A stretch of DNA of 64,000 nucleotides from a virus. Shown piece by piece: positions 3,254 through 56,523 of the stretch (its first letter is position 1; every line of letters begins with the position of its first letter). The stretch is from IMG/VR virus record IMGVR_UViG_3300023440_000001, positions 62,001 to 126,000 of that record. The stretch is one strand, 5' to 3'. The notes beneath the pieces were generated by a model, which saw only the letters and a program-made list of their open reading frames with translations, searched no databases and was not told where the DNA came from. The position numbers were made by a program, and so were the translations under genes.

Positions 3254-3466
3254 GTGGCCAACGTCAAAGCAATCATGCTGCGTGCCCGTCAGGCCGCCAA
3301 ACGCTCTGTTCAAAGGTCCCGGACCGTCTACTCAACGGATCCGGAAGTCAAACTGGAACTGCAGGAGCGACGCAAGAAGCACGAACGCCGCAAACAGAGT
3401 GAGATCCGCAAGCTGTATCTGACAGAAACATCCCGTGGGCGTAGCTGGCACGACTTTCTGGTGTAG
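3254..3466 (+). CDS. Small very basic protein, 70 aa
   Basis: GTG start behind AACCCAAAACGCAGGAGGTA (3228-3247). Composition is dominated by Arg/Lys/Glu (LQERRKKHERRKQSEIRKL), probably one long amphipathic helix. Its TAG stop lies inside the palindrome of the promoter-like element that begins at 3463. Function unknown; nucleic-acid binding is plausible. Confidence 0.6.
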   Translation: MANVKAIMLRARQAAKRSVQRSRTVYSTDPEVKLELQERRKKHERRKQSEIRKLYLTETSRGRSWHDFLV

Positions 3467-3503
3467 ACTGCCAGTCTACGCATTCCCGTTTCATTCACTC
3501 CCC
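3463..3503 (+). promoter_or_regulatory. Bipartite GTCTAC-N13-ATTCAC element, copy 1
   Basis: Palindrome GTAGACTG-C-CAGTCTAC (3463-3479), then exactly 13 bases, then ATTCACTCCCC (3493-3503). Ten bases after the box comes the start of a small membrane protein gene (3518). Fixed spacing in all seven copies suggests recognition as DNA by one protein, such as a sigma factor or activator, rather than as an RNA hairpin. Confidence 0.7.
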
Positions 3504-3517
3504 AGGAGGTAGATGAA

Positions 3518-3646
3518 ATGTTTAAACTGGTTCTGTATTTGATGTTCGCCCTGTACCCCTTTATGGTATGGGGCCTATATAAACTCATCCGGGCGTTTGA
3601 CCGCGTCCGGCAAACCAAAACCCAAAACGTGGAGGTAAAGTCATGA
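3518..3646 (+). CDS. Small single-pass membrane protein, 42 aa
   Basis: ATG 3518, with AGGAGG starting 14 bases upstream; first gene after promoter-like copy 1. Residues 1-24 (MFKLVLYLMFALYPFMVWGL) form a hydrophobic segment, then a basic tail, which predicts an inner-membrane protein with the tail in the cytosol. The final residues are encoded by the RBS leader of the next gene, and the stop overlaps its ATG (ATGA). Confidence 0.55.
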   Translation: MFKLVLYLMFALYPFMVWGLYKLIRAFDRVRQTKTQNVEVKS

Positions 3647-3939
3647 AACATCTGAAACGTGCAAAGGGCAGTGCCCGTCGTGCTATCAAACATCATAAAG
3701 GCTACATCTATCATCTGCTGCGCAAAGCCACTGATGTAAGTCGATTCGACGTCCACTTCTCCAACGAACCGCGGGATCTGATGAGAGTCGTCAAACGTAT
3801 CTGGCCGCTGATTAAAGATGACCCCCGCATCAGCTGCTACGCCAAAAGCCCGGAATCCTTCCGTAACTACGAGATTGCCCGGGCCGCTCGATTCGCAATC
3901 AAAGACGGTGCCATTAAGGCACTGCATCAACACCTATAA
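3643..3939 (+). CDS. Hypothetical basic protein, 98 aa
   Basis: Starts behind AACCCAAAACGTGGAGGTA. Strongly basic N-terminus (MKHLKRAKGSARRAIKHHKG) and a helical body. No known family. Overlaps the upstream 42-aa gene by 4 bases. Confidence 0.6.
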   Translation: MKHLKRAKGSARRAIKHHKGYIYHLLRKATDVSRFDVHFSNEPRDLMRVVKRIWPLIKDDPRISCYAKSPESFRNYEIARAARFAIKDGAIKALHQHL

Positions 3940-3964
3940 ACCCAAAACACAGGAGGTAAGTATC

Positions 3965-53842: not shown

Positions 53843-55021
53843 ATGTCCAGAGACAAACCCCGAATTGTTAGACGTGGTGAAGGGGATCTGAATGTGGTCT
53901 ATCGACCGCTTCGTTTTGCTGAATTATACGGTCCGACTCGAAAGGCTGCTGTTCAGTTCTATAACTGGCTGCGACAGTTCGATCGGACTCTGACCAAGCA
54001 CAGCTTTCTTATCTCCGGTGAATCCGGTGCCGGTAAAACTACCCTGGCACTGATTATATCTCTGGCACTGAATTGCGAGGATCCCCAGCCTAACCCCAGA
54101 ACCGGTGATGAAGTAGAACCGTGTCTGAAGTGTGGCAGCTGCCAGCGGATCCTGCGTGGTGCTATGAATGCATCTGATGATTCTCCGGTGAAGTTCTATA
54201 ACTCGCCATCAATCGATAAAGACCGGATTCGCTGGATTGTGGATAATGAGATCAAAGGTCCGCGACCCATCTTCGGTGCCAGAGCGGTTGTCACTGTATT
54301 CGACGAAGCACATGGATTGACCTGGGAGCAACGTCAGCCGTTGTTAACTACGCTGGAGATGTTGCCATCCTACTCGTATGTCTTCTTTCTGACTTCCCGG
54401 CCGGAGAAGTTCAGAAAACTGAAAGATGGTGAAGATAACTCGCTGTATTCCCGGATCGGAGTGGTGGATCTGGTACCCTGGTCTGATAAACAGATATTTG
54501 AACTGCTGAAAGACGTGGCCATAACGGAACATTCCCTGGAACGCTGTCCGGAAATAGAAGATAGTGCCCTGCGCTATCTGGCTCATATTGGTACCGGTAA
54601 TCCGCGTACTTCTATTTCGGCACTGGATGTGGTAATCAATGGCGTGGACAGAGATGTTCCGATGATTACGCTGAAAGATGTTAAGCAGTTCTATCCTGGT
54701 GCATCCGATCCGGATATTGAAAGTACAGCTGAGGAGATGCGAGACGTATTTCGGGCCTTTTATAATAATAACCTGGAAGTGGCATTGAAACGTCTGGAAG
54801 AGATGGAGAAGAAGCGCTTCAAGCCGGATGATATCAAATACTCCCTTAACAAGTTCCTGCGCAATAGAGTCTATCAGTATGCTCGCGAAGGGAATCATTC
54901 CCGGCTGGAGGAGTTCTCCCGTAAGCTTCAGGCCTTCTCTTCAGCTGCTTTTGCCAGAGATGGTGAAGAGTTCTCCAATCTGGTAACAGGTGTTATTCAG
55001 GCATTAACAATTAGAAGTTGA
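53843..55021 (+). CDS. dnaX: Clamp-loader ATPase (DnaX-like)
   Basis: 392 residues; ATG 53843 is placed by GGAGG 8 bases away. Loads the sliding clamp. Seen: VYRPLRFAELYGPTRKAAV at the start, Walker A GESGAGKTTLAL (~59), a zinc module within EVEPCLKCGSCQRI (Cys at ~82, 93, 96, 99 region), Walker B VTVFDEAHGLTWEQR (~150), sensor-1 YVFFLTSRPEKF, and an arginine-containing C-terminal helical domain. No separate delta subunits are seen, so it may form a homo-oligomer or use a host or distant partner. Confidence 0.85.
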   Translation: MSRDKPRIVRRGEGDLNVVYRPLRFAELYGPTRKAAVQFYNWLRQFDRTLTKHSFLISGESGAGKTTLALIISLALNCEDPQPNPRTGDEVEPCLKCGSCQRILRGAMNASDDSPVKFYNSPSIDKDRIRWIVDNEIKGPRPIFGARAVVTVFDEAHGLTWEQRQPLLTTLEMLPSYSYVFFLTSRPEKFRKLKDGEDNSLYSRIGVVDLVPWSDKQIFELLKDVAITEHSLERCPEIEDSALRYLAHIGTGNPRTSISALDVVINGVDRDVPMITLKDVKQFYPGASDPDIESTAEEMRDVFRAFYNNNLEVALKRLEEMEKKRFKPDDIKYSLNKFLRNRVYQYAREGNHSRLEEFSRKLQAFSSAAFARDGEEFSNLVTGVIQALTIRS

Positions 55022-55029
55022 GGTCAGAT

Positions 55030-56457
55030 ATGGATCTGAATGATCTTCCCAAGGTTAAACTTCCCAGAGTGATGTATAAGTCTCTGCCGCTGAAAGATGG
55101 TAGTAGGGTTGACCTTAATATTGAGAATGAGTTCTTCTATGATGATGAAGATGGTACGTGGTATGTCGTCTGTCGGTGTGATTATGGTGGTCGTACTCTG
55201 ACTGGTCGAACTGTACTGGATAATAATATACTGGAGGATCTGAAGTCCGGTGTTGTTAGCATTGATGAATACTGTCAGTCGGAGCGGTTTAATGCGGTAA
55301 TTGTCGGCCTGTCCGAGATCATATTAGGTGCGGTTGATGATCTGGATGTAAAGCATCTTACCACGAAAGAAGTAAAGGATGCTCGTACCATAGAAGCCTA
55401 TACACCGCAGGCTATTGCCCAGAAGTCCCGGTCTGTAGGGCGAGACATTGCCCGAATCATACTGGAGTCTGCTTTCGGGAAGGGTAAACGCCTGAGTAAG
55501 GTACCGAAAGAGTATCGGATTACTCCACCAAAGGCAATTGTTCCGGATGATGTTATCGTATCGACGGTGCTGCGGTATATTGCTGAGGGATCACCGGCCG
55601 TGGCCCTGGTAGGCCCTACCGGGGTAGGGAAGAGTTACACGGCTCAGCATATCGGTGCCCTGTTGAATCTGAAAGGGTATGCCGTCATGCGTATTGATGC
55701 CAATGCCAGAACCGAAGGGGATCGACTCTTCGATCGGGATGACTTCAACGAGAAGGGTACCTTTATTCTGGAAGGAACCCTGACTACCTTTGCCCGCCGA
55801 ACCAAAAAGCTGGGCCTGAAAGCGCTGGTTATCATAGAAGAATACAATGCCTTTGATGATGCCACTCGTCGGGAGTTCTATCAGCTGTTTAATGATGAAG
55901 AGCGCTACTATACGATTCAGTCCAGTAAAGATCAGAAGGTTCTGGATCGAGTAGACTTCCATCATGTTCAGTTCTTACTAACAGGTAATCCGGTAACCAG
56001 TGAGAAGTATCTGGTTGACGACTTGAAGCGCTTTAGCAATGCCGAAGCCCGTCGTATAGTCATGGTCTATCAGGATTACTCCCAGGATCCCAGGTACATC
56101 CGTAGAGTTCTGATGGCCATTATCCGCAAGAAACCCATCTACGAAGAGATCAAAAAGGAAGTTGCCGATATCGATGAGATTATTGATCTGAATATGGGTG
56201 TGCGCTGTTTTCGGGAATTGAACAGACCCAATGGTGACGGTTATCGACTGGGTTTCGATTTCGGTTACACTTCGGTTGCGAACTGGTTATGGACACTGGC
56301 AGTATACGGGTATACTGAGGAAGCCTGGATTCGTGCCACCGCAGATCACATACTGAATCCCATTCCTGACGTCCAGGTTCGGGAAGATGTCGTACATCGT
56401 CTGGAGAGTGTTTTCGGTGTCCATCTTCCCGGCTATTTGATCTATCGGGATTCCTGA
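55030..56457 (+). CDS. MoxR-type AAA+ ATPase, pair 2
   Basis: 475 residues; ATG 55030 after GAGG. Unique ~180-residue N-terminal domain, then AAA+: Walker A GPTGVGKSYTAQ (~195), Walker B ALVIIEEYNAFDDATRRE (EE instead of DE), sensor-1 FLLTGNPVTSEKY, and lid. Distinct from the pair-1 ATPase in length and motifs but of the same MoxR-like clade. Directly upstream of a second VWA-metalloprotease gene, beyond a terminator-like hairpin and promoter-like copy 6. Confidence 0.82.
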   Translation: MDLNDLPKVKLPRVMYKSLPLKDGSRVDLNIENEFFYDDEDGTWYVVCRCDYGGRTLTGRTVLDNNILEDLKSGVVSIDEYCQSERFNAVIVGLSEIILGAVDDLDVKHLTTKEVKDARTIEAYTPQAIAQKSRSVGRDIARIILESAFGKGKRLSKVPKEYRITPPKAIVPDDVIVSTVLRYIAEGSPAVALVGPTGVGKSYTAQHIGALLNLKGYAVMRIDANARTEGDRLFDRDDFNEKGTFILEGTLTTFARRTKKLGLKALVIIEEYNAFDDATRREFYQLFNDEERYYTIQSSKDQKVLDRVDFHHVQFLLTGNPVTSEKYLVDDLKRFSNAEARRIVMVYQDYSQDPRYIRRVLMAIIRKKPIYEEIKKEVADIDEIIDLNMGVRCFRELNRPNGDGYRLGFDFGYTSVANWLWTLAVYGYTEEAWIRATADHILNPIPDVQVREDVVHRLESVFGVHLPGYLIYRDS

Positions 56458-56466
56458 TACTGATGG

Positions 56467-56488
56467 TCACGGGACCGGTATCCCGTGA
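56467..56488 (+). terminator. Hairpin after pair-2 ATPase
   Basis: TCACGGGA (56467-56474) pairs with TCCCGTGA (56481-56488) around CCGGTA. The last bases are shared with the palindrome of promoter-like copy 6. No U-run; it may be a terminator helped by a factor, or an extended operator. Confidence 0.5.
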
Positions 56489-56523
56489 CTGTCAGTCTAC
56501 ACCAAAGCGATTCATTCACTCCC
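56488..56523 (+). promoter_or_regulatory. Bipartite GTCTAC-N13-ATTCAC element, copy 6
   Basis: GACTG-T-CAGTC core with right arm to GTCTAC ending at 56500, then 13 bases, then ATTCACTCCC (56514-56523). The left arm is replaced by the 3' arm of the preceding hairpin, as in copy 3. It precedes the pair-2 VWA gene, whose ATG is 34 bases downstream. Confidence 0.68.

What the first reader, a model, noticed from the sequence alone, without database searches (positions are those of the whole stretch)
3463..56523. Seven-copy bipartite intergenic element with invariant 13-base spacing
Seen directly: GTCTAC followed after exactly 13 bases by ATTCAC at 3474/3493, 8146/8165, 20499/20518, 31031/31050, 34806/34825, 45919/45938 and 56495/56514 (starts of the two boxes). 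Six copies share the core GACT(G/C)nCAGTCTAC; in copies 1, 2, 4 and 5 this is the full palindrome GTAGACT(G/C)nCAGTCTAC. Five end in TCCC. All are on the + strand, all lie in gaps at the boundary between gene blocks, and the 13 intervening bases are not conserved. Fixed spacing with variable filler is the mark of a two-box protein-binding site: a phage-specific promoter, or a -35-like operator plus -10-like box, not of a simple terminator. It matches no standard host promoter I know. The phage sigma factor, the region-4-like protein and the XRE protein are candidate readers.
Basis: seen in the sequence. Interest (0 to 1): 0.87.

Follow-up and report, generated by a model that had tools for sequence, protein, structure and literature searches.

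The report
Activator-type promoters of an uncharacterised phage
A repeated two-box DNA signal in an uncultured tailed phage proves to be the upstream part of a three-part on-switch, found again in a distant relative, that probably turns on its DNA-replication genes with the help of a regulator not yet identified.

Summary
GTCTAC-N13-ATTCAC occurs 8 times in the 136-kb phage contig (7 in the window), all on the + strand; about 0.008 are expected. One detail is wrong: the full palindrome is in copies 1, 2, 4, 6 and 8, not 5.

A third box, TATATT, lies 28-30 bp downstream of the first base of ATTCAC. A phage relative (G013; sigma 44%, portal 59% identical) has six equivalent sites: a TGT-N12-ACA palindrome, a box 12 bp on (AATCTACA, ATCCTACA or TTACACG), then TATATT or a near match. 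Three of these stand before the same or a neighbouring gene as copies 4, 7 and 8. TATATT falls in one 3-bp window in 7 of 13 sites; the best of 300 shuffle sets gave 3.

No -35 element precedes TATATT at these sites, whereas several other intergenic TATATT boxes have TTGxxx 17 bp upstream. Best explanation: activator-dependent middle promoters, with the regulator on the palindrome (about -63), a box near -42, and host-type RNA polymerase at TATATT. The regulator is unidentified.

Late genes carry a separate motif, TGACATAWCTA, conserved across the family. No transcript data exist.

The parts
3462..3480 (+). Copy 1 palindrome (TGTAGACTGCCAGTCTACG); contains the stop codon of the upstream gene
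3493..3502 (+). Copy 1 ATTCACTCCC; followed directly by a Shine-Dalgarno AGGAGG; no convincing TATATT box
8134..8152 (+). Copy 2 palindrome TGTAGACTGTCAGTCTACA
8165..8174 (+). Copy 2 ATTCACTCCC
8195..8200 (+). Copy 2 -10-like box TAATAT (near match, offset 30)
20487..20505 (+). Copy 3 partial palindrome GAGTGACTGTCAGTCTACA
20518..20527 (+). Copy 3 ATTCACTCCC
20548..20553 (+). Copy 3 -10 box TATATT (offset 30)
31019..31037 (+). Copy 4 palindrome TGTAGACTCCCAGTCTACA; contains the stop codon of the upstream gene
31050..31059 (+). Copy 4 ATTCACTCCC
31062..31072 (+). Late-type motif TGACATATCTA lying inside copy 4, between ATTCACTCCC and TATATT
31080..31085 (+). Copy 4 -10 box TATATT (offset 30)
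31120..31311 (+). 63-aa FmdB-type zinc ribbon, first gene behind copy 4; its ortholog in relative G013 is also first behind an equivalent site
34806..34830 (+). Copy 5: exact two-box match but no palindrome, no TCCC, no TATATT; probably decayed or non-functional
39677..40405 (+). Phage sigma factor, regions 2-3 clear, no region-4 match; candidate reader of the late motif
45907..45925 (+). Copy 6 palindrome CGTAGACTGTCAGTCTACA
45938..45947 (+). Copy 6 ATTCACTATT, within a strong 13-bp hairpin
45968..45973 (+). Copy 6 -10-like box TATCAT (near match, offset 30)
49643..50269 (+). XRE-family HTH regulator; one candidate reader of the palindrome (untested)
56483..56501 (+). Copy 7 partial palindrome CCGTGACTGTCAGTCTACA
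56514..56523 (+). Copy 7 ATTCACTCCC
56543..56548 (+). Copy 7 -10 box TATATT (offset 29); only 9 bases before the called ATG
58917..59192 (+). 91-aa stand-alone protein with the predicted fold of sigma region 4

Best explanation
The repeat is the upstream, regulator-binding part of a three-box middle promoter that drives the phage's replication and nucleotide-metabolism operons. A dimeric DNA-binding protein sits on the palindrome TGTAG-N8/9-CTACA, centred about 63 bp upstream of the start of transcription. A second box at about -42 (ATTCAC here; AATCTACA, ATCCTACA or TTACACG in the relative) is contacted by the same protein or a partner. The bound complex recruits host-type RNA polymerase to the -10 box TATATT, standing in for the missing -35 element. 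Shown: the three boxes, their near-invariant spacing, their orientation and position ahead of genes, and their conservation in a relative, at a matching or neighbouring gene in three cases. Inferred: that TATATT is the -10, that the effect is activation, the timing (middle), and that a dimer binds. Unknown: which protein binds.
For: Eight exact + strand copies against 0.008 expected. In relative G013, TGTAG-N8-CTACA occurs 4 times against 0.17 expected, all four in gaps 70-92 bp ahead of a same-strand gene; two further sites were found with the three-box model. Three G013 sites match G000 copies by position: 52812 and 80567 stand before orthologs of the first genes behind copies 4 and 8, and 70184 lies between the same two gene blocks (clamp loader and o154) as copy 7, though the first gene there is not an ortholog. 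Exact TATATT within one 3-bp window in 7 of 13 sites; maximum 3 over all 6-mers and windows in 300 dinucleotide-shuffle sets. A scoring scan gives values of 30 or more only at known G000 and G013 sites and none in relatives G007 and G009; reversed controls gave only 1 to 7 hits per strand, scores not printed. In IMG/VR scans, of the contigs carrying the two-box pattern only the G013 loci have TATAwT at 28-29. No -35: best TTGACA match 2.67 of 6 at the sites, 2.90 background, whereas several other gap TATATT boxes have TTGACT, TTGCAT, TTGCGT or TTGACA 17 bp upstream.
Against: Copies 1, 5 and the minus-strand copy lack a convincing TATATT. At copy 7 and at G013 38162 and 30345 the TATATT or TAAATT box is only 5-9 bases from the called ATG, so those mRNAs would be leaderless or the start codon or the -10 assignment is wrong. 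No protein was tied to the palindrome. No transcript data. Only two phages carry the element, so the comparison rests on one relative; the third box was noticed before it was tested, on the same sites.
Confidence: 0.6

Rival explanations
1. The palindrome is an operator for a phage repressor (for example the XRE protein at 49643), and the three boxes are a promoter that is shut off by binding.
For: Palindromic sites and an XRE/CI-like HTH protein in the phage; the XRE gene is itself in the operon behind copy 6.
Against: The palindrome lies upstream of the -35/-10 zone rather than over it; spacing to the other boxes is invariant, which repression does not need; and there is no -35 element, so the promoter looks too weak to need a repressor.
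Confidence: 0.15
2. One reading: GTCTAC is a -35-like and ATTCAC a -10-like box read by the phage sigma factor, with transcription starting about 11 bp after the first base of ATTCAC.
For: Position +30 from GTCTAC is a purine and +29 a pyrimidine in 8 of 8 copies, as at many start sites. A sigma factor and a separate region-4-like protein exist.
Against: In the relative with a 44%-identical sigma the box at the ATTCAC position differs in sequence and shifts by up to 3 bp while TATATT stays put. A different motif, TGACATAWCTA, is the family-wide late-gene signal and the better candidate for the phage sigma. Does not explain TATATT.
Confidence: 0.1
3. The palindrome is an RNA hairpin at the 3' end of the upstream operon (terminator, processing or 3'-protection signal), and only the ATTCAC...TATATT part is a promoter.
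For: In copies 1 and 4 the palindrome overlaps the upstream stop codon; copies 2, 4 and 6 fold far better than shuffles (z -4.5, -6.9, -6.2). In G013 the stem sequence varies with both arms changing together in part.
Against: No T-run; copies 3, 5 and 7 do not fold significantly; the primary sequence is nearly constant in G000 and the distance to the next box is fixed, which hairpin terminators do not show.
Confidence: 0.1
4. A holoenzyme made of the phage's own split sigma (regions 2-3 protein at 39677 plus the stand-alone region-4-like protein at 58917) reads the whole three-box element.
For: The region-4-like protein is predicted to fold like E. coli sigmaE region 4 bound to -35 DNA and occurs in G000, G013, G009 and G007; the sigma shows no region-4 match.
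Against: G009 has relatives of both proteins but none of these sites; TATATT is also the -10 of TTGxxx-N17 promoters, which points to host-type sigma.
Confidence: 0.05

Closest known systems
Phage P2/186 late promoters activated by Ogr/B/Delta zinc-finger proteins
   Same: Imperfect palindrome TGT-N12-ACA upstream of a promoter (consensus as given in PMC3931495); all six G013 sites are TGT-N12-ACA. Several operons under one signal.
   Different: G000 has TGT-N13-ACA. The palindrome is centred near -63 here rather than near -55 (P2 value from my own knowledge). There is an extra box near -42. No protein with the Ogr CX2CX22CX4C motif was found; the zinc ribbon at 31120 has CX2C-X16-CX2C.
T4 middle promoters (MotA box plus sigma70 -10, no -35)
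   Same: A phage activator site replaces the -35 element while a standard -10 is kept (PMC2988021).
   Different: The MotA box is one non-palindromic site centred at -30; here there is a palindrome near -63 and a second box near -42. MotA and AsiA were not searched for specifically; none appeared in the Pfam scans.
CRP/FNR class I activation (regulator at about -61.5 touching alpha CTD)
   Same: A palindrome at about the same distance from the start of transcription (from my own knowledge).
   Different: No CRP-family protein was seen; the fixed second box near -42 is not part of simple class I promoters.
T4 gp55-type late promoters
   Same: The late motif TGACATAWCTA is a short single-block signal ahead of structural genes, in a phage with a sigma of regions 2-3, as TATAAATA is for gp55 (from my own knowledge).
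   Different: Different sequence, and a separate class from the element of this finding.

Membership tests
sigma70-type (host) promoter | -10 hexamer close to TATAAT | tested here: met
   TATATT or near match at 28-30 bp from ATTCAC in 6 of 8 + strand G000 copies and 6 of 6 G013 sites
sigma70-type (host) promoter | -35 hexamer close to TTGACA at 15-19 bp | tested here: not met
   Mean best match 2.67 of 6 at 12 sites, 2.90 background
T4-type activator-dependent middle promoter | Activator site replacing the -35 element, with good -10 | tested here: inconclusive
   Site, -10 and lack of -35 found; activation not testable
T4-type activator-dependent middle promoter | Activator box centred at -30 | tested here: not met
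   Nearest box is near -42, the palindrome near -63
P2 Ogr-type promoter | TGT-N12-ACA | tested here: inconclusive
   6 of 6 in G013; N13 in G000, with both TGT and ACA in copies 2, 4 and 8
P2 Ogr-type promoter | Ogr/Delta zinc-finger activator CX2CX22CX4C | tested here: not met
   Among about 70 window proteins scanned none passes Ogr_Delta; best 16.1 bits against cut-off 26.3 for a protein with another Cys pattern; not all phage proteins were scanned
Intrinsic terminator | Stable hairpin followed by a T-run | tested here: not met
   No T-run after the palindrome; 3 of 7 copies do not fold better than shuffles
Known RNA element (Rfam) | Match at gathering score | tested here: not met
   Only a tRNA-like match at 26025-26148 in the whole window
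Phage-sigma promoter | Recognition by the phage sigma protein | not testable with these tools
   Needs in vitro transcription; TGACATAWCTA is the better sequence candidate

The most novel reading that the evidence does not exclude
The phage carries a split sigma: one protein with regions 2-3 and a separate 91-aa protein with region 4. The stand-alone region-4 protein binds the palindrome as a dimer and tethers polymerase from about -63, so that a sigma fragment has become an upstream activator.
Probability: 0.05. Interest if true: 0.8.

Novelty: new variant of a known kind. Interest (0 to 1): 0.5.

Why it matters
The element, together with two other signals found here, gives a first sequence-level map of three promoter classes in an uncultured phage lineage with almost no relatives in GenBank: host-type (TTGxxx-N17-TATATT), middle (palindrome + box + TATATT) and late (TGACATAWCTA). 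It predicts start sites to within a few bases and which operons switch together. If the split-sigma partners prove to act together, it would add a new way for phages to take over polymerase.

Tried and rejected
Near DNA relatives in GenBank phages: none for the stretch tried. The 17-specified-base two-box pattern in IMG/VR: six contigs, all single matches without a palindrome. Dyad search in relatives G007, G009 and G013 turned up tandem or coding repeats, not operators. A G007 palindrome ahead of the ortholog of copy 7's gene (133771, minus strand) was considered as an equivalent site, but it has neither the box nor TATATT, so it was not counted. The symmetric changes in G013 palindromes as proof of an RNA hairpin: too few sites and also expected of a protein dimer. 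FmdB-type zinc ribbon as an Ogr homolog: wrong cysteine spacing, score below cut-off. A blind test on further relatives was attempted with the DNA polymerase and sigma alignments; no relative with the middle region beyond those already in hand was found in viral or genome contigs. Moorella MTATph1, Bacillus KLEB27-3 and Acinetobacter ME3 share the portal but have neither the late motif nor the region-4-like protein.
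Full report
What the window is. It is positions 62,001-126,000 of a 136,294-bp IMG/VR virus contig, called G000. The contig belongs to a contractile-tailed phage: tail sheath, portal and terminase on the minus strand at 4.7-43 kb, and family A DNA polymerase, primase, ribonucleotide reductase, RecA, SSB, dUTPase and helicase on the + strand from 54 kb on. An 11-kb stretch of it has no near DNA relative in GenBank phages. 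Relatives were found through the portal protein: G001 (42 kb, essentially identical to the left part), G013 (188 kb; portal 59%, sigma 44% identical), G007 (148 kb) and G009 (198 kb), among others.

GTCTAC-N13-ATTCAC is present exactly as listed. The contig has an eighth copy, none on the other strand, and the backward-read control has none. Of all + strand GTCTAC/ATTCAC pairs within 100 bp, eight have a gap of 13 and one has another spacing. About 0.008 are expected. Copy 5 also lacks TCCC and the third box below, so it may be decayed. A degenerate ninth copy on the minus strand (contig 52,348) sits in the small minus-strand block at 49-54 kb.

A third box. Lining up the copies on ATTCAC showed TATATT at offset 30 in copies 3 and 4 and at 29 in copies 7 and 8, with TAATAT in copy 2 and TATCAT in copy 6 at offset 30. 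This was seen first by eye and then tested against all 6-mers and all 3-bp windows: with the four G013 sites known at that time, exact TATATT falls in one window in 7 of 13 sites, and the best of 300 dinucleotide-shuffle sets reached 3.

The same architecture in a relative. G013 has TGTAG-N8-CTACA four times against 0.17 expected, all in gaps ahead of genes on the same strand. Twelve bases after CTACA comes a box (AATCTACA, ATCCTACA or TTACACG), and TATATT or a one-off variant follows at 28-29. Two more sites (15545, 80567) were found with the three-box model. Sites 52812 and 80567 stand directly before orthologs of the genes behind copies 4 and 8. Site 70184 lies between the same two gene blocks as copy 7, but the first gene behind it is not an ortholog of copy 7's gene. 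The palindrome-to-TATATT distance is constant to 1-2 bp across both phages while the middle box changes. A scoring scan separates the G000 and G013 sites from everything else in four genomes.

Why TATATT is probably the -10. It matches TATAAT at five of six positions. Elsewhere in the gaps of these phages several TATATT boxes are preceded at 17 bp by TTGACT, TTGCAT, TTGCGT or TTGACA, which looks like ordinary host-type promoters. At the three-box sites no -35 is present (2.67 of 6 against a background of 2.90). The palindrome and middle box therefore seem to replace the -35 element. With -12 set at the first T, the middle box starts near -42 and the palindrome is centred near -63. The weak point is that copy 7 and G013 sites 38162 and 30345 have the box only 5-9 bases before the called ATG, which would make those messages leaderless unless the start codons are wrong.

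Activation or repression. The fixed geometry, the missing -35 and the position of the palindrome upstream of the core promoter favour activation. This is inference. The binding protein is not known. Candidates are the XRE protein (49643), conserved at about 26% in G013 at the same place in the operon; the FmdB-type zinc ribbon (31120), first gene behind copy 4 and behind its G013 counterpart; and the region-4-like protein (58917). A host regulator is also possible.

The sigma factor and the late class. Protein 39677 matches primary sigma factors over regions 2-3 (E 2.6e-12) and has no region-4 match; its model shows three short helices at the C-terminus, at lower confidence. Protein 58917 is modelled with high confidence over residues 11-60 and its best solved match is E. 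coli sigmaE region 4 on -35 DNA (probability 1.00, TM-score 0.74-0.77 by target, E-value only 0.018). Both are found in G013 and G009; the region-4-like protein is also in G007. Gaps ahead of late genes in G000 and G013 share TGACATAWCTA: 12 exact copies in G000, 16 in G013, 7 in G007, 5 in G012, 4 in G003, with no match to the backward-read control in any of these contigs and none in three more distant phages. This is the better candidate for what the phage sigma reads. Copy 4 carries this motif too, inside the middle promoter, so that operon (zinc ribbon and DNA polymerase) may be expressed both in the middle and late phases.

Verdict. The repeat is real, the promoter idea is right in kind, and the -35/-10 assignment is probably wrong. 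It is best read as a phage-specific, regulator-dependent promoter class, a new variant of a known kind. Its reader remains to be found.

Noticed in passing
contig 13936-13946, 17620-17630, 27276-27286, 42687-42697 (minus) and others; window 31062-31072: TGACATAWCTA ahead of late genes, conserved across the phage family (G000 12, G013 16, G007 7 exact copies; reversed control 0): probable late promoter.
   Followed up: yes
window 517-531, 2193-2207, 2339-2353, 2705-2719, 3942-3956, 8201-8215; contig 129896, 133972: CCAAAACACAGGAGG, a 15-base leader with built-in Shine-Dalgarno, repeated eight times exactly (a ninth with one change at window 3231).
   Followed up: partly
window 26025-26148: Rfam tRNA match (37 bits) with about 50 extra bases, tRNA-Leu-like; ARAGORN does not call it. 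Could be a tRNA with an insert or a decayed gene.
   Followed up: partly
contig 4730-12853 (minus): 2,707-aa protein beside the structural genes with a Cas4/RecB-like nuclease match at residues 1787-1944, conserved in G013, G007 and G009.
   Followed up: no
window 58917-59192: Stand-alone protein with the predicted fold of sigma region 4, next to a conserved unknown gene (58249), in four phages; possible split sigma with 39677.
   Followed up: partly
window 45929-45960: Strong 13-bp hairpin spanning the ATTCAC box of copy 6; looks like the end of the ribonucleotide reductase operon merged with the promoter.
   Followed up: no
window 20484-20528: In copy 3 the left arm is replaced by TAGGGAGTGA, the reverse complement of the TCACTCCCTA of its own ATTCAC box.
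   Followed up: no
G013 1-100 and 188545-188693: Terminal tandem repeats with the palindrome GTTCGGAATTCCGAAC at both contig ends.
   Followed up: no
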